Source of the DNA: a virus
Virus record (IMG/VR): IMGVR_UViG_3300005826_000005
Span: 1-42,541 of that record
Length of the DNA: 42,541 nucleotides
Strand: one strand, 5' to 3'
Part shown: piece by piece, positions 66 through 42,541 of the stretch
Layout of the letters: the number at the start of each line of letters is the position of its first letter
Numbering within the stretch: the first letter of the stretch is position 1
Position numbers and translations under genes: made by a program
Notes under the pieces: generated by a model
What the model was told of the DNA's origin: nothing
The model's database searches: none
What the model saw: the letters and a program-made list of their open reading frames with translations, nothing else

Positions 66-608
66 TCAGTTGTCCTGGTCCTCGACCAGCACTTTGTTGC
101 AGTGATCGCAGGCCAGGAACTCGTCATAGTTCCCGCTGTAGTCGAACCCAATGACCGACCACTGTGCATCCCACGGGTTCTCAGCCTCGCCGTCTCCCCG
201 CCAATCCTTGACAGGGTTCTCAGGGTCGCACACACACTTCTCGCACAGTGTGCCGCCATCCTCCATGACAGCGACGAGCCAATACCCGCCCATCAAGTCA
301 GGAACCAACGACGGGTCGTCGGCAAAGTCGTTGTCGTTCGACCGATACTCCAAGTCGTGGAGACGAAAGTCACGCTCAGCATCCGCCACGCTGTCGAACT
401 TCTCCAGCGTCACAAAGCCCACTGTGTTAGTGAACATGATGCGCTTGCCGACCCGTGCCGCTTGATAGAACCAGTCGTTCGCGTCACCCGTCGTCTCATC
501 GGCCATGCCGTCGCCAACCATGCGGTAGACGTATTCGGCCATCGGATCGGCCCCGAACTTGTGCCGTGCCGTCTCATGGTTGATCCTGTCACCATCGGTG
601 GTAATCAT
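66..608 (-). CDS. Acidic zinc-ribbon protein of unknown function
   Basis: The product is 180 aa and rich in Asp and Glu. Near the C-terminus are CEKCVC and CDHC pairs separated by a Trp-rich stretch (residues about 124-173), consistent with one structural zinc site. I chose the ATG at 608 because GGAAAGCGAGAACAGAC lies directly upstream; the longer open frame to 641 would include this leader. The next gene (33) starts just after the stop, with a CCACTA palindrome between. The Cys/acidic composition resembles the proteins at 40625-41482 and at the right edge, suggesting a related set. I do not recognise the family. Confidence 0.8.
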   Translation of the reverse strand: MITTDGDRINHETARHKFGADPMAEYVYRMVGDGMADETTGDANDWFYQAARVGKRIMFTNTVGFVTLEKFDSVADAERDFRLHDLEYRSNDNDFADDPSLVPDLMGGYWLVAVMEDGGTLCEKCVCDPENPVKDWRGDGEAENPWDAQWSVIGFDYSGNYDEFLACDHCNKVLVEDQDN

Positions 609-796: not shown

Positions 797-946
797 TCAG
801 GCTACGTGAGCGCGGGCCACGAGTCGGGCGGCGCGTTCGAGGTTGTGGCGTTCGCGTGCTTCGAAGGATCGCAGCATGGCGATGCGGCGCATCCGTTCGG
901 CTTCGATGTTCGCCACGGTCTTGTCGTAGGTGTATCGGTTCGGCAT
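797..946 (-). CDS. Small Arg-rich helical protein, first gene after LexA boxes
   Basis: A 49-aa basic protein, MPNRYTYDKTVANIEAERMR followed by Arg/Ala-rich helix to the stop. The sequence has no Gly and a single Pro, so it is predicted to be mainly helical; it could bind nucleic acid or a protein partner. The start is supported by GGAATGCGAGAAC 6 bases upstream, a variant of the start-associated sequence. It is the first gene downstream of two CCTAATCA palindromes and the tandem LexA boxes, so it is a candidate SOS-controlled switch gene. No family recognised. Confidence 0.7.
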   Translation of the reverse strand: MPNRYTYDKTVANIEAERMRRIAMLRSFEARERHNLERAARLVARAHVA

Positions 947-974: not shown

Positions 975-993
975 CCTAATCACCGTGATTAGG
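975..993. promoter_or_regulatory. CCTAATCA palindrome 1 (operator candidate)
   Basis: CCTAATCACCGTGATTAGG: perfect 8-base arms, 3-base centre. It lies 29 bases upstream of the ATG at 946 and 49 bases, centre to centre, from the copy at 1024. Confidence 0.7.
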
Positions 994-1023
994 TTCGGTC
1001 GGTCGGGGTCGGTTGTCGGTTGG

Positions 1024-1042
1024 CCTAATCAGCGTGATTAGG
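1024..1042. promoter_or_regulatory. CCTAATCA palindrome 2 (operator candidate)
   Basis: CCTAATCAGCGTGATTAGG. It is embedded in a 34-base sequence (1012-1045) found again exactly at 41524-41557, upstream of another minus-strand gene. Confidence 0.7.
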
Positions 1043-1050
1043 GTGAATGA

Positions 1051-1065
1051 TCGAACATACGTTCG
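1051..1065. promoter_or_regulatory. LexA (SOS) box 1
   Basis: TCGAACATACGTTCG matches CGAAC-N4-GTTCG, the box bound by LexA in mycobacteria and, in similar form, in Bacillus. The minus-strand reading also contains TATGTT, a possible -10 element, so LexA bound here could block it. Confidence 0.75.
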
Positions 1066-1076
1066 GATGACGTGAA

Positions 1077-1091
1077 TCGAACATACGTTCG
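1077..1091. promoter_or_regulatory. LexA (SOS) box 2
   Basis: A second identical TCGAACATACGTTCG, 26 bases from the first, about 2.5 helical turns. On the minus strand TTCGAT at its edge lies 16 bases before the TATGTT in box 1, so the two boxes could cover the -35 and -10 of one promoter driving the gene at 946. Confidence 0.75.
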
Positions 1092-1092
1092 G

Positions 1093-1338
1093 CGGTCCGA
1101 TGCTGGCACTAGAGGCCAGAGGCCACCAGGCCTGCCAGGCCAGAGGCCACTAGAGGCCCGCTAGAGGCCCGCTATCGGTTGCCCTGGTGTCAGGGTGCGG
1201 GCCGATCAATGCCAGGCCCACCAGAGGCCCTAGACAGGCCAGAGGCCCTAGGCCCGAACATGACGAACGGCCCGCACCCTGTCAGGGTGCGGGCCGTTGG
1301 CCTCTGGTGATAGTGCAGGCCCCTGGCCTGCCCTGGTG
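1093..1338. other. GGCC-rich non-coding stretch
   Basis: No gene is seen. The stretch is crowded with AGGCC words (CAGAGGCC several times, GCTAGAGGCCC twice). It also has a 16-base direct repeat of the type GTCAGGGTGCGGGCCG near 1189 and 1281, the second copy being one arm of the hairpin at 1266-1298. Confidence 0.5.
1266..1298 (-). terminator. Perfect GC-rich hairpin downstream of the 205-aa gene
   Basis: Sixteen-base perfectly complementary arms (AACGGCCCGCACCCTG and its complement) with one central base. It lies about 40 bases past the stop of the minus-strand gene at 1339. No T-run is obvious, but the strength and position suggest it ends that transcript. Confidence 0.6.
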
Positions 1339-1956
1339 TCACTTGCCTTGGCTCGCCTCTTCCTTCAGGGTCTGGGCCTGCTTGAGCAGAGCAGAGGCAA
1401 CCTTGACCATGCGGTCAGGATTATTCCCGACACTCTTCGCCACCGTGGCCGCAATTCTGCGAGCATTGAAGCGGGCCTTACTGGCCTTGCGGGCCTCGCT
1501 GGTCTGGCCGAAAGCGCGTCCGTTGGTGCACCAGGTCACCAGGCCCACCAGTGTCGGACTATCGTCGCGCTCACGGGCCTCGCTGACGTACGTTCCGACA
1601 TCGGCGGCCACGTCTCGGCCTTCAAAGGCCTTGAACAGAGTAACGGCCCTGGTGTACGTGGCGAGGCGGACAGGCTGACTCTTGCCAGTCTCGGCACACC
1701 AGGCCTGGAACGTGGCGCGGTCTCCATGCTCTGCGGCAATCGCGAATCCGCGAGCAGAGAGGCCTGACAAATGAACGTGACTGCCTGCCGATGCCAGGGC
1801 AGAGGCCACAGTCACCATGGAACGTGCCTCACTGGTCTCGGCCTTGCGGACATCGGCTCGGCCTGCCTTGACGTGCCGTTCCAGGGTCTCGGCCTTGCGG
1901 GCCTCTTCGACCTCACCTTGTGCCTTGATCGTAGTTGTATCGGGTGACTTTGCCAT
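1339..1956 (-). CDS. Unknown 205-aa Ala/Glu-rich protein
   Basis: The first ~60 residues are rich in Lys, Glu, Ala and Arg and likely coiled or disordered. The middle (about 60-150) has more globular composition with Trp and Cys, and the C-terminal ~50 residues are again basic and helical. The ATG at 1956 follows TGAAAGCGAGAGGCCAGTC, a start-associated sequence, and the CCTAATC palindrome at 1984-2003. It is monocistronic: own leader, and a strong hairpin after the stop. The DNA is unusually rich in GGCC words. No family recognised; a DNA-binding or partition role would be a guess. Confidence 0.7.
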   Translation of the reverse strand: MAKSPDTTTIKAQGEVEEARKAETLERHVKAGRADVRKAETSEARSMVTVASALASAGSHVHLSGLSARGFAIAAEHGDRATFQAWCAETGKSQPVRLATYTRAVTLFKAFEGRDVAADVGTYVSEARERDDSPTLVGLVTWCTNGRAFGQTSEARKASKARFNARRIAATVAKSVGNNPDRMVKVASALLKQAQTLKEEASQGK

Positions 1957-24468: not shown

Positions 24469-25356
24469 AGCGCAACGCGCCTCTCCGACCTCCCGATTCC
24501 CCCGCGGCCAGATTACTTCGGTCCTGACGGCGCACCGCCAGGTGTGCGGTTGCAGTTCGACGCCTTCGTCAACGCCAGTGGGAACCCCTGGTACCGCAAC
24601 CGACCGCTAATCAGGCCGCGGGTGGCTGTCGTCCACACGAACGCCGCTCAACGAGAAGGCACCCTCCAGTCTCAGATCAACTGGGGGAACAGCGCAGCCG
24701 ACCGCACGAAACCCCACTACGCAGTGAACTGGCCGCAGCCAACCAAGCTGGTGCCCTCCGATCGACGTGCGATCGGGAACGCCACACCGTTGTGGTTCGA
24801 AGAACACGAAGGCGAGAGGGACTGCTCGTATTGGACGCTGAACGTCGAGACTGCCGACTCGGGCACCCTCGCCGACCCTGGCATCTCCGACTTCCTGAGC
24901 GAATCGGTGCACGGCACCATCGAGGTTCGCCACGACGAGATCGTGGCTCGCATCCTCGCCTACGAATCCGTTGTGTGGGGGTTTCCTCTGGCTGTGCCTG
25001 TCAGATGGAACGCCACGGGTGTAACAACACACACGTGGCCCTACCCCTACCCTCATTACACCACGGTAAATGGGAAGACCTGCCCTGGTGACAAGAAGAA
25101 GGCCAAGTTTCGCGACGAGATCATCGGGCGGGCACAGCAGATTAAGGATGCGTGGTTGCGCCCGCACAAGGAGGACGACATGAAGTTCATTCGCATCAAG
25201 GGGTACGCCGACCAGTTCTTGGCCATCCCTGTGTCGGCTGAAACGAAGTCACGTATGCAGGCGAACAGTGCGCCTGTCATGCGTGTGCTGTCTGAGGTCC
25301 CGAAGGCTGAGCTGGAAGAGTTCTTCGGTTACCCGTTGACTGCGTACAAGGATTAG
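24466..25356 (+). CDS. Endolysin, N-acetylmuramoyl-L-alanine amidase
   Basis: A 296-aa protein of the amidase_2 zinc type. VVHTN with H57 opens the catalytic fold. Later residues THTWPYPYPHY with H189/H197 and KTCPG with C206 supply the remaining zinc ligands (H, C). It would cut between muramic acid and the stem peptide. The C-terminal ~65 residues, beginning DDMKFIRIKGYADQF, may bind the wall. No signal peptide, so a holin is needed. Its stop overlaps the convergent gene by 4 bases. Confidence 0.85.
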   Translation: MSATRLSDLPIPPRPDYFGPDGAPPGVRLQFDAFVNASGNPWYRNRPLIRPRVAVVHTNAAQREGTLQSQINWGNSAADRTKPHYAVNWPQPTKLVPSDRRAIGNATPLWFEEHEGERDCSYWTLNVETADSGTLADPGISDFLSESVHGTIEVRHDEIVARILAYESVVWGFPLAVPVRWNATGVTTHTWPYPYPHYTTVNGKTCPGDKKKAKFRDEIIGRAQQIKDAWLRPHKEDDMKFIRIKGYADQFLAIPVSAETKSRMQANSAPVMRVLSEVPKAELEEFFGYPLTAYKD

Positions 25357-26159: not shown

Positions 26160-26384
26160 TCAGTATTCCTCATCGTATTGGTCGAGCAGCCACGCATCGA
26201 ACGCTTCGTTGTATTCGGCTGATTGTTGGAAGATTTCGTGCTGTCGGTCGTCGCATTCTGCTGATTCTTGGAACATTTCTTGCAGTCGGTCGTCGTATTC
26301 GGCCGATTCTTGGAAGATTTCGTGCAGTCGGTCATCTTCGGCCGCTGCGATATACGGGGCTTCCAACCACGTGTCGTAACTCAT
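26160..26384 (-). CDS. 74-aa acidic protein with three 14-residue repeats
   Basis: Residues 17-58 are three tandem copies of DDR-x-x-E-(I/M)-FQ-(E/Q)-SAE-(Y/C), encoded by 42-base DNA repeats at 26211-26336. Flanking segments have Trp (DTWLEAP, DAWLLDQY) in mirrored positions. The charge is strongly negative. Such a protein could be a helical adaptor or DNA mimic, but no homologue is recognised. It overlaps the upstream gene as ATGA. Confidence 0.65.
   Translation of the reverse strand: MSYDTWLEAPYIAAAEDDRLHEIFQESAEYDDRLQEMFQESAECDDRQHEIFQQSAEYNEAFDAWLLDQYDEEY
26211..26336 (-). repeat. Three 42-base tandem coding repeats
   Basis: In-frame repeats with a 14-codon period, diverged at a few bases, all inside the 74-aa gene. 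Confidence 0.7.
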
Positions 26385-27223
26385 GCGGCCACGTCCATGA
26401 ACAATGCGTCCTCGGGTCCTGCGAGTTCCAGTTCGAATGTTTCCGCTTTCAACATTCGGGCGATTACGGCGTAACCGATGATGTCTCGGAACGAATCGAG
26501 TAGCGATTCGTTACGGGGGCGTGTTCCCGCTGCCGTCAGATTCTTGATCCGTTCCAACTTGTCGGAGGATCGAATCACGACGCCAATCATCCCGAACTTC
26601 AAGATGTTGCCGTGCCCGTAGTCCTCTTGCTTCGAGACGAGCAGCTCGTGCATGCCGATGAACGACCATTTGCCGACCGAGCGGAGGTAGTCGACGGCGT
26701 AGCGGGCGGCTGCGGTCAGGCACTTTGAAGCGTCGTTCTCTCGTTCCTCGTGGATCGCTTCGACTGCGCCGAAGATGTTGTAGGAGATTGCCAGCATTGC
26801 CCGCTTCGCATTCAACGGTTTCGTGGGTTCATCGTCATCGAACATTGAGCCAGCTATGACCAACAGCTCGGACATGGCTTCACTGTTCCAGGTTGGTTGC
26901 ATTCCGATCCTTTCACGGACAGGTCGATGGTTGAGGGAAAGGTAGCGGAGACGATCGACGGCTTGCTTGTGGAGACGCCAGGCGTGTGTGCGGCTCACGC
27001 CCAGGCGGTCGCCCAGTTCTTGATAGCCGATCTGCTCGAACGCGATGGCGTCAACGATGTACGTCTCTTCGGGGGTCATCATTTCGGAGACGTAAGCGAC
27101 CACATCGAGTAGCGGCTGGACTTCTTCGATGGACACCTGGTCGGCTTCGTTGGGGCCGCTCTGCATCAAAGCCTGGTATAGCGTCTCGGGTCTAATGTCC
27201 TCAGTTGTGTAGTCCGTCGGCAC
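26381..27223 (-). CDS. Sigma-region-4-like HTH fused to a DUF1599-like domain
   Basis: I chose the GTG at 27223, preceded by AGCGAGGACAATC; 280 aa. Residues about 50-95 (TPEETYIVDAIAFEQIGYQE then LGDRLGVSRTHAWRLHKQAV) look like sigma-70 region 4. Residues about 190-258, with KQEDYGHGNILKFG, DKLERIKN and ESLLDSFRDIIGYA, match the DUF1599 (Nmad1-like) pattern linked to modified nucleotides in phages. A fusion of the two is unusual. It could be a regulator of late transcription or a modification-linked factor. It overlaps the upstream gene by 23 bases. Confidence 0.7.
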   Translation of the reverse strand: MPTDYTTEDIRPETLYQALMQSGPNEADQVSIEEVQPLLDVVAYVSEMMTPEETYIVDAIAFEQIGYQELGDRLGVSRTHAWRLHKQAVDRLRYLSLNHRPVRERIGMQPTWNSEAMSELLVIAGSMFDDDEPTKPLNAKRAMLAISYNIFGAVEAIHEERENDASKCLTAAARYAVDYLRSVGKWSFIGMHELLVSKQEDYGHGNILKFGMIGVVIRSSDKLERIKNLTAAGTRPRNESLLDSFRDIIGYAVIARMLKAETFELELAGPEDALFMDVAA

Positions 27224-27695
27224 GATTGTCCTCGCTCTGTAGGGCGACGTCGGGGACGGAGATCGGATCGCTCGGGAAGTGTTCGGCATGCAGCTTCCAA
27301 TACTGTTTCTTGTTGTCGGGGAAGTGGTCGGTCGACGCGTGCTCTATGCACTGCTCAATCCATTCCCAAATCGACGCTTGCCATGCCCGCTTACGTTTGG
27401 AATCGAACACGAACAGGTCGGTGGGATGCACGTCGTCCCACACGATCAGCGTCAAGGCTTTCTCGGTCTTGAGCTTGAGGGTTTGGTCTGCGCCCACGCC
27501 CATGCACTCCACGTAGCGGTCCTGAGCGAGACGATCGGGCGTGTATCGGATGAGGCGGGGGAGCTGGGCGACGTTCAGCGGCGGTCGGTTGAGCCCCAAC
27601 TTGTGATTCTTGGGGTTAAGGGTGTCGAATGCTTCCTCGGCTGGGTCTCCCATCAACCCAAGTCGGGACGCAAACGTTCCATCCTTATAACCCAC
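27201..27695 (-). CDS. 164-aa protein, possible nuclease
   Basis: Starts at GTG overlapping the upstream TAG (TAGTG). Contains YVECMGVGADQTLKLKTEK, LIVWDDVHPTDLFVFDSKRK and WIEQCIEH. Spaced E, D and K residues could form a PD-(D/E)xK-like site, but I cannot confirm the fold. It lies among replication genes between the RusA block and the sigma-like gene. Confidence 0.65.
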   Translation of the reverse strand: MGYKDGTFASRLGLMGDPAEEAFDTLNPKNHKLGLNRPPLNVAQLPRLIRYTPDRLAQDRYVECMGVGADQTLKLKTEKALTLIVWDDVHPTDLFVFDSKRKRAWQASIWEWIEQCIEHASTDHFPDNKKQYWKLHAEHFPSDPISVPDVALQSEDNRADGLHN

Positions 27696-32917: not shown

Positions 32918-33625
32918 TCAGGATGCTACCGCATCCAAGTTGCGAACGGGTGGCATCTCGCGATCAAGTTCCCCCCGCTCCACCATCTTGTAGCGCATCT
33001 GGAGACACTGGTTGTAGGTCGCCTCGTACCCGTCGACAGCCACGGCGGCCGACACGTCGTGAGGGTGGAGCCCCGCTAGCAGGTGCTCACGCATTGATGC
33101 CAGGCGGTCGTTCGCGTCGGCGTTCGGGACGACACCGTACAGATGACACAACGTCTGCACCATGTGGTGATTCACACCCAATCTGCGCCCGATCTCACGG
33201 GCGCTCATCTTGCGGGCCTCGTCATACAGCACGCCCTCCGCCGTCAGCCAGTCGACCTCCGACCAGCCGACCACCACCGAGTGGCGATCTTTGAACACAG
33301 CGGCGACGACATCTTCCAACTGCTCACCGAGCAAGCGGGGGACGTCGACCATCGATGTCCCCGCCCGCAACAAGTTCATGACCGACTCGCGCAAGTTCGG
33401 AGCGTCATCGATCGCCCGCCACGAGTCGTACGCCCCCAAGAGCGCCTCACCGAAGTCAGCGACGTCGGCGGAGGACTCGATCCCGCCGAGCATGCCAACG
33501 GCGTTCATGATCTCTCGGCTGTGCCACACGTCCTCCAATCCGAATCTGATCGGCGTGAGCGTCGTGACGCTCACGTCGCACATGCACTCGGTCCCGTGGC
33601 CCTGCTGCCCGCAGTTCGGATTCAT
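32918..33625 (-). CDS. 235-aa HTH regulator candidate
   Basis: I chose MNPNCGQQGHGTECMC at 33625, after AGGGGAAACCGCCATC; the open frame to 33757 passes through palindromes and is probably leader. The Cys/His cluster at 5-16 may bind a metal. Residues 140-162 (MSAREIGRRLGVNHHMVQTL) are a clear helix-turn-helix, and a second helical pair (HPHDVSAAVAVDGY) follows. It has its own long leader with several palindromes and a strong terminator, hence independent control. Possible repressor or replication regulator. Confidence 0.7.
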   Translation of the reverse strand: MNPNCGQQGHGTECMCDVSVTTLTPIRFGLEDVWHSREIMNAVGMLGGIESSADVADFGEALLGAYDSWRAIDDAPNLRESVMNLLRAGTSMVDVPRLLGEQLEDVVAAVFKDRHSVVVGWSEVDWLTAEGVLYDEARKMSAREIGRRLGVNHHMVQTLCHLYGVVPNADANDRLASMREHLLAGLHPHDVSAAVAVDGYEATYNQCLQMRYKMVERGELDREMPPVRNLDAVAS

Positions 33626-33714
33626 GATGGCGGTTTCCCCTGATCTCGTGGTTGTGTGGCTGGCACTCACGTCCCTGCCCCGACCGCCATCGGAGCAGGG
33701 CCACCGATCCTTTC

Positions 33715-34019: not shown

Positions 34020-34258
34020 CCCCGACGGGGAAGTCGTGTTGAGGCGAGCCGAGCGAGTCGGCTCCACGGGGTGTCGTCGGCGGGCGGGGTGCCCGACTCG
34101 ATGATCTGCGCGACCTGCGTGCGAGACAGCTCGAACACCCAACAGATGTCTTCGATGAGCAGGCCCTCGCGGTAACAGGCGAGCACGGCGGCAGACACGT
34201 CCGTAGATACGGCTCCAGGGCCGCGTGAGACGTCTCGCTGGACTGGCTGGTCGGTCAT
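34016..34258 (-). CDS. 80-aa HTH protein co-translated with a recombinase
   Basis: Residues about 22-52 (VSAAVLACYREGLLIEDICW then VFELSRTQVAQIIESG) form a helix-turn-helix. The start overlaps the recombinase stop as ATGA, so it is made in fixed ratio with it. It could be a recombination directionality factor or a small repressor; the sequence does not decide. Confidence 0.7.
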   Translation of the reverse strand: MTDQPVQRDVSRGPGAVSTDVSAAVLACYREGLLIEDICWVFELSRTQVAQIIESGTPPADDTPWSRLARLASTRLPRRG

Positions 34259-35244
34259 GCCGCGGCCCCCTCGTCATCGAACCACGCGTCCGTGGCGACG
34301 TACCGCATCGTCGTGGACAGATCAGCATGTGACATCTGGTCCGCCATGACAATCGGTGGCATCCCGATCCGTAGGCAGTTCGTTGCGAACGAGTGCCGAA
34401 GTTGATGCGGGGTGAACGTGTCCATGATTCCAGCCTGGTGTTGCACCCGTTCGACCGTCCTGTTCACGGCGTGGGCGTCGACGCTGCCGCTGACGCCTTC
34501 GAACGCTGCGATGAGTCGCACTGCCTCCATCCTACGGCGGTAGTTGACCTGGGAGCCGATGAGGCGGATGAAATCGTGCGTCTCGGCCGTCACGCACGGG
34601 AGTCCCTTGCGTTCCATCTTGTCGATGATGGAGCCGTAGTAGACGACACCACCCTCTTTGCCTCCCTTGCGATCGAACCACTGGATGGTTCGATCGGAGG
34701 GGCTCACGTGCTCGACGCCGAGCAGCGCAACCTCGTGGCGGCGCAACCCTGCGTAGTACATGAACCCCAACGTGAGCCGATCCTCGATGCCCAGGTCTGA
34801 CGTCCAGACCTTGAGCCACTGTGCGTCCGTCACAGGCCGCGGGTTCCGTCGCGACCCGCGAGGGGCAACGACCTCCTTTGCGGGGTTGTGGTCGCACACG
34901 CCACGACCGTTCAGGTAGCCGAACAGCAGCCGCAGTGCGGCAACTCGGATGCGGAAACCCGACGCCGAAGGGTTGTCGATCTCGGCGAACGTTTCGACCT
35001 GCTCGACGGTGACGGTCGACCAGTCAAGGTCGCTGGTCGTCTCCCCACGGCGGGAGTGCGGGGAGAACTCGTGCGGTTCCTCCCACGTGTCAGGTTCGAT
35101 GCCTTGGTAGCCGACGAACTTCTCGACGGCATCGCCATAGGCACGCACGGTTGAATCGGACAGTCGTCGGTGGACTTTCATCCATCTCACGAACTTGATC
35201 GTTGTGGGCGTGGCAACGCGCGCCCTGAATGTTCGATGACTCAT
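34255..35244 (-). CDS. Tyrosine recombinase A
   Basis: A 329-aa protein with a SAM-like N-terminal core-binding domain (about 12-110) and a catalytic domain. Residues: R168 (AGLRRHE), K193 or K196, H280-x-x-R283 (HQLRHSFAT), H306 (QMSHADLS) and nucleophile Y315 (TTMRYVA), all present. The start at 35244 follows AGAAAGCGAGAACAACTGAA. It is 1.9 kb from attP, whereas recombinase B is adjacent, so its substrate may differ, for example dimer resolution or a second site. Confidence 0.88.
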   Translation of the reverse strand: MSHRTFRARVATPTTIKFVRWMKVHRRLSDSTVRAYGDAVEKFVGYQGIEPDTWEEPHEFSPHSRRGETTSDLDWSTVTVEQVETFAEIDNPSASGFRIRVAALRLLFGYLNGRGVCDHNPAKEVVAPRGSRRNPRPVTDAQWLKVWTSDLGIEDRLTLGFMYYAGLRRHEVALLGVEHVSPSDRTIQWFDRKGGKEGGVVYYGSIIDKMERKGLPCVTAETHDFIRLIGSQVNYRRRMEAVRLIAAFEGVSGSVDAHAVNRTVERVQHQAGIMDTFTPHQLRHSFATNCLRIGMPPIVMADQMSHADLSTTMRYVATDAWFDDEGAAA

Positions 35245-35292
35245 TTCAGTTGTTCTCGCTTTCTTGATTTGGGTTGGTGTGTTCGGACTTGC

Positions 35293-35997: not shown

Positions 35998-36029
35998 AGC
36001 ATTCTCGCTTTCTCTTGGTTGTCTGTTAG

Positions 36030-36085: not shown

Positions 36086-36979
36086 TCACGCAGCGTCGAA
36101 CAGTCGGTGAGCGTGTTCAACAGCCTGAACGGCCTGGACAGCCTGCGTGTACCGTCGCACCATCTCAGGATGACGCCAGCCACACACGACCCGCAGATAC
36201 GTCTCCGAGCCGCCCGCCTCCAGCCAGCGAACAGCGAATCCCCGACGCAGCGAATGAGCAGACACATGCACACCCGCCAACTTCGCACGCCGAGTCACCA
36301 TCTGCGACACGCCGCTCGCCTCCAGATGCTCCTGAGGACGGCAACGCTGAACGGCATGCCACAACCAACCGTTCGGCACGTCAGGTCGAACGATCAGGTA
36401 GCGCTCCAACAACAGCACCGCCTCATCCGACATCACCGTCCGCCGCTCATCGCCGTTCTTGGTCTCACGCAGCAGCACCGTCCGATCAGCCAAACTCACG
36501 TCCTCACGGAGCAGGTTGGCACACTCGCCAGCCCGCATCCCCGACGACGCCAACATCGAAATCAGCGCAGCATCTCGACGGCCCAACAACGACGTGTTGC
36601 ACGTCGCCAGCAGAGCCTCCACGTCGGCGGCCGACGCGACCGTCGTCCGCTCGTCCGAAGGCTTCGGGTCCTCAGGCGTCCCGCCCAGCCGCTTCGGCAA
36701 CCGAGCCAACGGATCATCAACCTCCAGCCGCTCAGCCCGCCACCGAGAGAACGCCCGCAACGCACGGAACCTCATCTTCACCTGACACTGTGACACGCCG
36801 TCCAACACGAACGTTTCAGCATCCTCGATGTCGATAACCCAACCGAACGCCTCCCCATACTCACGGACCCTCGCAACATACTGCGAGCCCATCCGAGCAT
36901 TACCAGGGCGACCCTTCCGACCGCCCGCCCGCTCATACCATTTCTGGTACTGCGTCAAGTTCCTATCCGTGAAATCCAT
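36086..36979 (-). CDS. int: Tyrosine integrase B, adjacent to attP
   Basis: A 297-aa protein. Core-binding domain about 5-100; catalytic R149 (SGMRAGE), K174 (ETKNGDERR), H242-x-x-R245 (HSLRRGFA), H270 (GWRHPEM) and nucleophile Y277 (RRYTQAV). All six positions are intact. The start at 36979 follows AGAAAGCGAGACATC. The attP with tRNA-Gly sequence lies about 190 bases upstream, the usual int-attP arrangement, so this is the probable integrase. A conserved promoter for the next operon begins after its stop. Confidence 0.9.
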   Translation of the reverse strand: MDFTDRNLTQYQKWYERAGGRKGRPGNARMGSQYVARVREYGEAFGWVIDIEDAETFVLDGVSQCQVKMRFRALRAFSRWRAERLEVDDPLARLPKRLGGTPEDPKPSDERTTVASAADVEALLATCNTSLLGRRDAALISMLASSGMRAGECANLLREDVSLADRTVLLRETKNGDERRTVMSDEAVLLLERYLIVRPDVPNGWLWHAVQRCRPQEHLEASGVSQMVTRRAKLAGVHVSAHSLRRGFAVRWLEAGGSETYLRVVCGWRHPEMVRRYTQAVQAVQAVEHAHRLFDAA

Positions 36980-37107
36980 GATGTCTCGCTTTCTAGTAAG
37001 GCCACAGAGAGTGACCGATTCGGTGTGCCCGCCGAATGGCGAGCCGTAAACAGGGTGAAGCTCTAAACCAACGAAGGTGACGCTCTAACGATCTCCGACC
37101 AGGACGT

Positions 37108-37165: not shown

Positions 37166-37203
37166 GCGGACGTGGCTCAGTTGGTAGAGCATCACCTTGC
37201 CAA
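37166..37203 (+). other. attP: attP core: 5' half of tRNA-Gly(GCC)
   Basis: Thirty-eight bases read as a tRNA from the acceptor 5' strand (GCGGACG) through the D-arm (GCTCAGTTGGTAGAGC) and anticodon 5' stem (TCACC) to the loop TTGCCAA with anticodon GCC. The matching 3' half (GGTGA stem, T-arm, acceptor 3' strand) is absent, so this is not a functional tRNA alone. It sits beside integrase B and therefore marks the probable attP. Confidence 0.85.
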
Positions 37204-37230
37204 CGGGACTGGAGAACCTGTCCCGTTGGC
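37199..37230. repeat. Perfect inverted repeat starting in the anticodon loop
   Basis: GCCAACGGGAC, 10-base loop, GTCCCGTTGGC. The left arm begins with GCCAA of the anticodon loop. It may be an integrase core-site or a terminator that ends transcription from the tRNA promoter in the free phage. Confidence 0.6.
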
Positions 37231-37291
37231 CGCAACCCTTCGGGATGCGAGCCAATGCAATCGGCAGACACAGAACGCGGAGAGTGGCAGG

Positions 37292-37426: not shown

Positions 37427-37658
37427 TCGTTGTCTCGCTTTCTGGGTTGTCGAGCGCTTCGGTGAGCGCCATGTTGATTTCGTCTCGTGCGCTCACCATC
37501 GTGGCGAGCTGTTGGGTTTCGTGTCGGTAGGTGGCGGAGTCGGGATTGGCTCGGACGAGTCGGCGGTGGTTCCTGTCGATGGAGATGTTCAGCGCCTTGG
37601 CGGCCTCGACCATCTCGTCCATCGTCAGTTCCAGTGGGTAGCTCGGTTGGTTGTTCAC
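37407..37658 (-). CDS. 83-aa helical acidic protein
   Basis: The GTG at 37658 is within the 3' arm of a long hairpin; an alternative ATG start (MDEMVEAAKALNISIDRNHR) downstream has GGAA at a better spacing. The sequence is largely helical. Its last residues NPESETTNEQLDT are encoded by the start-associated sequence of the next gene. Function unknown. Confidence 0.6.
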   Translation of the reverse strand: MNNQPSYPLELTMDEMVEAAKALNISIDRNHRRLVRANPDSATYRHETQQLATMVSARDEINMALTEALDNPESETTNEQLDT

Positions 37659-38270: not shown

Positions 38271-38368
38271 TGTGTTGTCTCGCTTTCCTCTGTCAGTTCC
38301 TTACGGAACGGGTTTGGGTTTGGGTGGTACAACCAGGGTGTGGGTGACTGATCCCACCAGTCTGCCAT
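38261..38368 (-). CDS. 35-aa microprotein with strong ribosome-binding site
   Basis: MADWWDQSPTPWLYHPNPNP then a short charged end EESETTQCQ. GGGAGGAAAGT precedes the ATG, and CTCCCCGAAAGGGAG can fold over it. The end encodes the start-associated sequence of the next gene and overlaps it by 10 bases. Trp/Pro-rich, unlike a chance frame. Confidence 0.55.
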   Translation of the reverse strand: MADWWDQSPTPWLYHPNPNPFRKELTEESETTQCQ

Positions 38369-39460: not shown

Positions 39461-39494
39461 GGTGTCTCGCTTTCTGTTGTGGTGTTAGATAGTA

Positions 39495-39528
39495 GCCCAC
39501 GGTACCACTAGGTAGTGGCACCGTGGGC
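39495..39528. promoter_or_regulatory. Nested 34-base palindrome around a CCACTA site
   Basis: CCACTAGGTAGTGG (39505-39518) is extended on both sides by GCCCACGGT and its near complement, giving 16-base arms with one mismatch and only GG in the centre. It covers the -35 position of the promoter implied by the -10 at 39494-39483, so a bound protein would block it. Confidence 0.65.
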
Positions 39529-40508: not shown

Positions 40509-40536
40509 GTCTTTCTCGCTTTCTTCGTGTGACCCG

Positions 40537-40550
40537 CCACTAGGTAGTGA
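40537..40550. promoter_or_regulatory. CCACTA palindrome, one mismatch
   Basis: CCACTAGGTAGTGA, extended by CCCG and CGGG on the two sides. It is 13 bases upstream of the start-associated sequence of the 201-aa gene. Confidence 0.6.
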
Positions 40551-40621: not shown

Positions 40622-40635
40622 CCACTAGTCAGTGG
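40622..40635. promoter_or_regulatory. CCACT palindrome overlapping a stop codon
   Basis: CCACTAGTCAGTGG; the TAG stop of the 285-aa gene (40627-40625) is inside it. Confidence 0.55.
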
Positions 40636-41482: not shown

Positions 41483-41523
41483 GATGTTCTCGCTTTCTGG
41501 TTAATATTGCTCGGTTTGTGAAT

Positions 41524-41557
41524 GTTGTCGGTTGGCCTAATCAGCGTGATTAGGGTG
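41524..41557. repeat. 34-base exact repeat with CCTAATCA palindrome
   Basis: Identical to 1012-1045 and contains CCTAATCAGCGTGATTAGG at 41536-41554. It lies 42-75 bases upstream of the ATG at 41482, with weak promoter elements CCGACA and AATATT in and beyond it. Confidence 0.75.
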
Positions 41558-41559
41558 TT

Positions 41560-41572
41560 CACTAGGTAGTGG
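41560..41572. promoter_or_regulatory. CCACTA-family palindrome next to the 34-base repeat
   Basis: CACTAGGTAGTGG, three bases from the end of the repeat, so both palindrome families are present upstream of one gene. Confidence 0.6.
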
Positions 41573-41581
41573 TCAGTCTGG

Positions 41582-42541
41582 TCATCCGTCCTCGATGGTG
41601 AAACCGTGGTCGTTGTAGTTGAAGATCGACCAACCATCGGCGTCACGGACGAGAACCTCCATGTCCAGGTCGACCTCGGCGTCGAACGTGCCAGCACGCA
41701 GCGCCTCGCCTTCCTCGTCGGTCGGCTCCCGCCACCCAGCGGGCATCGCATGGGCCGAACCGTAGACCTTCGCAGCGTCGGACAGTCGGTCGCCAGCCTC
41801 GCCAAGTCCACGATCCCAGAACCCCGTGCCGTGACCGTTGCGGGTCAGCCAGAAGTCATGGCCGACCTGTTCCCACGTCAGCTTGCCGCTGTTGACCAGC
41901 GCACCCAGGGTGCGGCACGCCTCACCCTTGAGGAAGTCCTCGACCTCGTTGAACACGTCGTCATCGTTCTCGCAGTCATCGGGGTCGAAGTAGTCGTCCA
42001 TCATCCCGTTGCCGTCGCCCGAACCCATGCAGTCGTCGGGGGCCGACTCTGACCAGAGCGCCGCCACTAGGTAGTGGTGCATGACGTTGGTCACGATGTC
42101 ATCGGTGATCGGATGCGGCCACACTGCCAGCCGTTCACGGGAACCGCCGAGCGTCGAGCCGCAACCGTGGCACGACCGCCACGTGAACTCCTCGTGACCA
42201 TCGCCGTGCACGGTGGCACTGTTCGGGGTCGCCCAGTCACGCCACCAGCCAGGGGTGCCGACAGCCTTGCAGGTCAAACGACCGTTCGCATGAGCCCATT
42301 CGATGCCGACATCATCCAGGTCATAGTCGACATGCCACGACGCCATGATCCCCTCTTCGCAGTGTTCACACCTGCCGACCTCGGACGGGTCGTAGGTCCA
42401 GTCCGACAGGTCGTAGGCGTCATCGAGCAGACCGAGCGGTTCCTGGTCGCATGGCGTGTCGGATTCACCCGAATACCATGCGGCCCCGTCGTGTTCGCAG
42501 TTCTCGACGTTGCACTCTTCGCAGTGCCAATGGGCACCGTA
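41582..42541 (-). CDS. Acidic multi-CxxC protein, open at the right edge
   Basis: At least 319 aa, open to base 42541 with no start of its own required. CEECNVENC and, later, RCEHCEEG form a first zinc region; SCHGCGSTLGG a second. The rest is acidic with Asp-rich runs (near DYFDPDDCENDDDVF). The frame continues into codons 11 to 1 at 33-1 if the map is circular. An internal ATG at 42346 is a possible but less likely start. A perfect CCACTA palindrome lies inside (42064-42077). Confidence 0.75.
   Translation of the reverse strand, partial: YGAHWHCEECNVENCEHDGAAWYSGESDTPCDQEPLGLLDDAYDLSDWTYDPSEVGRCEHCEEGIMASWHVDYDLDDVGIEWAHANGRLTCKAVGTPGWWRDWATPNSATVHGDGHEEFTWRSCHGCGSTLGGSRERLAVWPHPITDDIVTNVMHHYLVAALWSESAPDDCMGSGDGNGMMDDYFDPDDCENDDDVFNEVEDFLKGEACRTLGALVNSGKLTWEQVGHDFWLTRNGHGTGFWDRGLGEAGDRLSDAAKVYGSAHAMPAGWREPTDEEGEALRAGTFDAEVDLDMEVLVRDADGWSIFNYNDHGFTIEDG
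42064..42077. promoter_or_regulatory. CCACTA palindrome inside a coding region
   Basis: CCACTAGGTAGTGG, read as H-Y-L-V in the acidic multi-CxxC gene. Perfect copy. Confidence 0.45.

What the first reader, a model, noticed from the sequence alone, without database searches (positions are those of the whole stretch)
1051..1091. Tandem LexA boxes suggest the phage is switched by the host SOS system
Two identical TCGAACATACGTTCG sites 26 bases apart match the actinobacterial/Gram-positive LexA box and overlap possible -35/-10 elements of the promoter for the genes at 946 and 608. Phages such as GIL01 and CTX use host LexA directly as a repressor. No CI-type cleavable repressor is seen here, so LexA could be part of the lysogeny switch.
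Basis: partly seen in the sequence, partly recalled or inferred. Interest (0 to 1): 0.75.

Follow-up and report, generated by a model that had tools for sequence, protein, structure and literature searches.

The report
Host LexA operators in phage promoter
A temperate phage of an uncultured actinobacterium carries two near-perfect copies of the host's DNA-damage (LexA) operator in front of one of its early gene blocks, so host DNA damage probably turns that block on; this is a known type of phage control, here in a new phage.

Summary
Two identical 17-bp copies (ATCGAACATACGTTCGG) lie at 1050-1066 and 1076-1092, 26 bp apart, the only CGAACN4GTTCG sites in the 42,541-bp record. With a matrix built from actinobacterial lexA-promoter boxes both score 22.0 bits (known boxes: mean 18.8, maximum 22.8); the next window site scores 16.0, and none of 300 simulated windows has two sites this good. 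They sit in non-coding DNA between a strong hairpin (1266-1298) after the preceding gene and the leader of the 49-aa gene 797-946(-), as a LexA-controlled promoter would. A diverged relative (contig binned with an Acidimicrobiia MAG) has one such box (21.5 bits) at its early/late junction; other related contigs do not. No Peptidase_S24 or HTH_3 repressor was found. The phage is probably temperate: two tyrosine integrases, and half a tRNA-Gly gene beside one. Best reading: host LexA represses the unit starting at 946(-), and SOS relieves it. Whether this is the lysogeny switch or SOS control of an accessory early unit cannot be told from sequence. LexA-run phages, including tandem boxes (GIL01) and LexA-bound prophage genes in Streptomyces, are known: a new member of a known kind.

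The parts
1077..1092 (.). LexA (SOS) box, promoter-distal copy: TCGAACATACGTTCGG
   Evidence: 22.0 bits with lexA-promoter matrix
1051..1066 (.). LexA (SOS) box, gene-proximal copy: TCGAACATACGTTCGG
   Evidence: 22.0 bits
1080..1109 (-). weak candidate promoter: GTGCCA-18-TATGTT, -10 inside the distal box (inferred)
   Evidence: not found by the consensus scan
1266..1298 (-). strong hairpin between the 1339-1956 gene and the boxes, 15-16 bp stem (terminator-like, no U tract); suggests the boxes start a separate unit
   Evidence: -36 kcal/mol, z -6
975..1042 (-). two palindromes (CCTAATCACCGTGATTAGG 975-993, CCTAATCAGCGTGATTAGG 1024-1042) in the leader of the unit
797..946 (-). 49-aa ORF, first gene downstream of the boxes; no family match
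   Evidence: GC3 0.76
66..608 (-). 180-aa ORF, second gene downstream; no family match
1339..1956 (-). 205-aa ORF, first leftward gene, upstream of the boxes
36086..36979 (-). tyrosine integrase
   Evidence: Pfam PF00589 E 4.7e-26, phrog_1
34255..35244 (-). second tyrosine recombinase/integrase
   Evidence: Pfam PF00589 E 6.4e-19, phrog_1
37166..37203 (+). attP-like 38 nt identical to the 5' half of actinobacterial tRNA-Gly(GCC)

Best explanation
The two sites are true operators for the host LexA repressor. In a lysogen, or soon after infection of an undamaged cell, LexA dimers sit on both boxes and block the promoter of a separate leftward transcription unit that begins at gene 946(-) and continues through 608(-). 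When host DNA damage activates RecA, LexA cleaves itself and the unit is switched on, feeding early functions that favour lytic growth or excision. Shown: the sites, their fit to the host-type LexA motif, their position, and the lack of a detectable S24 or HTH_3 repressor. Inferred: LexA binding, promoter position, and effect on lytic growth.
For: Exact tandem boxes found nowhere else in the record. Both score 22.0 bits with a matrix from 34 actinobacterial lexA-promoter boxes (training mean 18.8), and no simulated window has two such sites. lexA promoters of Acidimicrobiia and other Actinomycetota carry arrays of the same box, e.g. CGAACAGACGTTCG and GGAACATACGTTCG. The ChIP-derived Streptomyces LexA consensus tCGAAC-N4-GNNCGa matches (PMC9380542). 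The boxes lie in non-coding DNA just after a -36 kcal/mol hairpin and before a leader, RBS-like sequence and ORF. A related phage contig in an Acidimicrobiia MAG carries one box, TCGAACAGACGTTCGG (21.5 bits), in its early/late junction. Host type actinobacterial: 38 nt of tRNA-Gly next to an integrase. No Peptidase_S24 and no HTH_3 in the record. As a class, tandem CGAACN4GTTCG pairs occur on at least 119 stretches of IMG/VR against 10 for the reversed control pattern.
Against: No convincing sigma-70 promoter is seen at the boxes. Most related phages with the same junction region have no box, nor does MW202803 in the equivalent place. The MAG that carries the related phage contig shows no such box upstream of its own lexA (L401), so that contig may be mis-binned. 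The host is not identified, so its own LexA motif was not tested. The genes downstream have no known function.
Confidence: 0.72

Rival explanations
1. LexA is the main or only lysogeny repressor, as in GIL01: it holds the early region off and SOS cleavage is the switch, perhaps with the 49-aa product as co-regulator. (A stronger version of the best explanation.)
For: No S24 or HTH_3 repressor found; two strong tandem boxes, as at GIL01 P3 (PMC6182141); a small ORF directly downstream.
Against: The boxes are behind the first early gene and a hairpin. Many early genes have their own leader palindromes, which could belong to a separate phage control. HTH-bearing unknowns exist (32918-33628; 26381-27289). 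Relatives lack the box.
Confidence: 0.25
2. The boxes control an accessory, damage-induced early gene (for example an antirepressor of the Tum/Gifsy type or a host-modifying small protein), while lysogeny is kept by an unrecognised phage repressor. (A weaker version of the best explanation.)
For: The boxes precede a separate unit starting with a 49-aa and a 180-aa ORF of unknown function; not conserved across relatives.
Against: No phage repressor or antirepressor family was recognised.
Confidence: 0.45
3. The palindromes are operators of a phage-encoded DNA-binding protein that merely resemble LexA boxes.
For: Phage repressors have their own palindromic operators; unknown HTH proteins are present.
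Against: The fit to lexA-promoter boxes is as good as that of the real ones. Only one place in the genome carries them, whereas this phage's other repeated palindromes occur at many early genes.
Confidence: 0.1
4. Chance occurrence or neutral duplication without function.
For: A single CGAACN4GTTCG is expected 0.12 times per window, and the second copy could be a duplication.
Against: The score is reached in 0.3% of simulated windows and never twice; non-coding promoter-like position; a box at a similar place in a relative.
Confidence: 0.05

Closest known systems
Bacillus phage GIL01 (Betatectivirus), LexA-gp7 control of P1 and P3
   Same: Host LexA boxes of the Gram-positive CGAAC...GTTCG type in phage promoters, tandem at P3, no dedicated phage repressor (PMC6182141, PMC4551915).
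   Different: GIL01 is a tectivirus of Bacillus that does not integrate; here an integrase-bearing phage of an actinobacterium with tailed-phage terminase genes. The LexA cofactor gp7 and LexA-like gp6 were not identified here.
LexA-bound prophage genes of Streptomyces venezuelae
   Same: Actinobacterial LexA motif tCGAAC-N4-GNNCGa; a predicted prophage cluster is among the most induced LexA targets after mitomycin C (PMC9380542).
   Different: Shown there by ChIP-seq and RNA-seq; here sequence only, in an uncultured phage.
SOS-dependent prophages as classified by PSOSP
   Same: Prediction based on LexA-box quality in prophage promoters (PMC12527982).
   Different: That survey reads boxes against the lysogen's own genome; the host is unknown here.
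Coliphage 186 Tum and Gifsy antirepressors (own knowledge, not looked up)
   Same: A LexA-controlled phage gene triggers induction while another protein holds lysogeny.
   Different: No antirepressor or repressor was identified here.

Membership tests
Phages directly controlled by host LexA (GIL01/CTX type) | LexA box matching host consensus in a phage promoter region | tested here: met
   22.0 bits twice against lexA-promoter boxes of Actinomycetota; exact host unknown
Phages directly controlled by host LexA (GIL01/CTX type) | Boxes overlap a recognisable promoter | tested here: inconclusive
   only TATGTT with a weak -35; scan negative
Phages directly controlled by host LexA (GIL01/CTX type) | LexA binds the site | not testable with these tools
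   needs EMSA or footprint
Phages directly controlled by host LexA (GIL01/CTX type) | Transcription or induction responds to DNA damage through LexA | not testable with these tools
   needs reporter or lysogen
GIL01-like (LexA as sole lysogeny repressor) | No dedicated phage repressor | tested here: inconclusive
   no Peptidase_S24 or HTH_3 hit in six frames; a repressor of another family is not excluded
GIL01-like (LexA as sole lysogeny repressor) | Small LexA cofactor gp7 / LexA-like gp6 | tested here: inconclusive
   49-aa ORF downstream has no family match; gp7 itself was not compared
Temperate phage | Integrase and attachment site | tested here: met
   two tyrosine integrases; 38-nt tRNA-Gly identity next to one; an attB junction was not observed

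The most novel reading that the evidence does not exclude
An integrating tailed phage of an uncultured actinobacterium (perhaps Acidimicrobiia) has no repressor of its own and uses host LexA on a tandem operator as its lysogeny switch, with the 49-aa product of the first gene as a LexA co-regulator.
Probability: 0.15. Interest if true: 0.6.

Novelty: new member of a known kind. Interest (0 to 1): 0.36.

Why it matters
It ties prophage behaviour in uncultured actinobacteria to the host SOS response and offers a sequence-only handle for predicting induction. At least 119 IMG/VR stretches hold similar tandem boxes against 10 for the control pattern, so direct LexA control may be common among environmental phages and could be surveyed.

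Tried and rejected
Conservation across terminase relatives: about 35 loci, no box at the junction; the near-box in L142 (5141) lies in a coding ORF and was set aside, as were boxes far downstream of the terminase in L134 and L150. Relatives of the 205-aa and 180-aa early proteins: none found in IMG/VR. Integrase in genome contigs: none confirmed; in Acidimicrobiia only generic matches of about 40% or less, and none of the twelve loci checked lies next to tRNA-Gly(GCC). The tRNA-Gly 38-mer is too widespread in Actinomycetota to name the host. MW202803, the nearest named phage genome by terminase (49%), has no comparable box at its junction. Query 41582-42346 gave only a widespread short domain. 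Homology of the first early genes of the window and of the G147 phage: none by BLASTP.

Full report
Observation. The exact repeat is 17 bp, ATCGAACATACGTTCGG. No other CGAACN4GTTCG site exists in the record. Under a first-order model 0.12 such sites are expected per window. The record is an IMG/VR virus record of 42,541 bp. A reading frame stays open across the two contig ends (MTTNLDDLGEA|YGAHWHCEEC...), so the map is probably circular and complete; this is an inference from one frame.

Is it a LexA box? A LexA DNA-binding-domain search gave lexA genes in Acidimicrobiia and other Actinomycetota genomes. In most of them one to several CGAACN4GTTCG-type sites lie within about 300 bp upstream, e.g. 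GCGAACAGACGTTCGG and CGGAACATACGTTCGA upstream of one lexA. A matrix from 34 of these sites gives the two window sites 22.0 bits each, against a training mean of 18.8 and maximum of 22.8; the third-best window site has 16.0. In 300 simulated windows the best site reached 22.0 in a fraction of 0.003, and the second-best never did. The published Streptomyces consensus from ChIP-seq is tCGAAC-N4-GNNCGa (PMC9380542). The matrix was built from sites chosen for resemblance to the consensus, so it is a test of fit to the family, not an independent discovery of the motif.

Position. The window carries a leftward early block (about 1956 through 1, probably continuing from 42,541 down to about 23,463) and a rightward late block from 3411. 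The boxes lie between gene 1339-1956(-) and gene 797-946(-). A 15-16 bp hairpin at 1266-1298 (-36 kcal/mol, z -6) separates the boxes from the gene before; it lacks a U tract, so it is terminator-like rather than a proven terminator. After the boxes come two CCTAATCA(C/G)CGTGATTAGG palindromes, an RBS-like GCGAGAAC and the 49-aa ORF. No good sigma-70 promoter is visible; TATGTT within each box is the only -10 candidate. If the distal TATGTT is the -10, the proximal box lies just downstream of the start of transcription, as in GIL01 P1, where LexA binds downstream of the start (PMC4551915); this is inference.

Lifestyle and host. Two tyrosine integrases (34255-35244, 36086-36979) and a 38-nt identity to the 5' half of actinobacterial tRNA-Gly(GCC) at 37166-37203, close to the second integrase, indicate a temperate phage of an actinobacterium. 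The exact host cannot be named. Peptidase_S24 and HTH_3 searches of the whole record found nothing, while the controls rang. HTH-like unknown proteins at 32918-33628 and 26381-27289 remain possible repressors.

Relatives. Terminase relatives at about 60% identity lack a box at the corresponding junction. One relative, contig C16 of an Acidimicrobiia-class MAG (terminase 53-57% in its better half), shares the structural and several replication genes and has exactly one full box, TCGAACAGACGTTCGG, 21.5 bits, at 25232-25247 in the junction between its leftward and rightward blocks. That MAG's own lexA has no detected box, so the host link of this contig is uncertain. Conservation is therefore suggestive and narrow.

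Wider context. Pairs of CGAACN4GTTCG 5-25 bp apart are found on at least 119 stretches of IMG/VR (the scan stopped at its limit), against 10 for the reversed control. 45 of 156 pairs fall outside ORFs of 80 aa or more against 0 of 9 control pairs, and many of their N4 cores have the purine-first, pyrimidine-last form of LexA boxes. Some of these pairs are coding repeats, so not all are operators.

Mechanism. Shown: sites, fit, place, lack of a detected S24 or HTH_3 repressor. Inferred: LexA dimers occupy both boxes and block the unit starting at 946(-), and SOS relieves the block. Whether this unit decides lysis versus lysogeny, or is an SOS-responsive accessory (antirepressor or host-modifying protein), is open. 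GIL01 shows that LexA can be the lysogeny repressor, with tandem boxes at P3 and a small cofactor (PMC6182141, PMC4551915); S. venezuelae shows LexA-bound prophage genes in an actinobacterium (PMC9380542). The finding is therefore a new member of a known kind. The confidences of the first two rivals are for refinements of the best explanation, not for alternatives that exclude it.

Noticed in passing
39-49, 614-624, 955-965, 1964-1974, 35253-35263, 36002-36012, 36983-36993, 37432-37442, 38277-38287, 39464-39474, 40513-40523, 41487-41497: A repeated RBS-like sequence (GAAAGCGAGAA on the - strand) precedes the start codons of most early genes, reminiscent of the start-associated sequences of cluster K mycobacteriophages (PMC3203893).
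   Followed up: partly
51-64, 39505-39518, 40537-40550, 40622-40635, 41559-41572, 42064-42077; 975-993, 1024-1042, 41536-41554: Two families of palindromes (CCACTAGGTAGTGG and CCTAATCACCGTGATTAGG) sit mostly in early-gene leaders, far above chance; variable loop length suggests RNA hairpins, but they could be phage repressor operators.
   Followed up: partly
37166-37236: 38 nt identical to the 5' half of tRNA-Gly(GCC) followed by an inverted repeat (CCAACGGGAC...GTCCCGTTGG): likely attP, unusual in carrying the 5' rather than the 3' half of the tRNA.
   Followed up: partly
34255-35244 and 36086-36979: Two different tyrosine integrases in one phage.
   Followed up: no
26381-27289: Protein with a sigma-70 region 4-like part and a DUF1599 (nucleotide modification associated) part.
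   Followed up: no
1-33 and 42274-42541: A reading frame stays open across the contig ends, suggesting a circularly permuted complete genome.
   Followed up: partly
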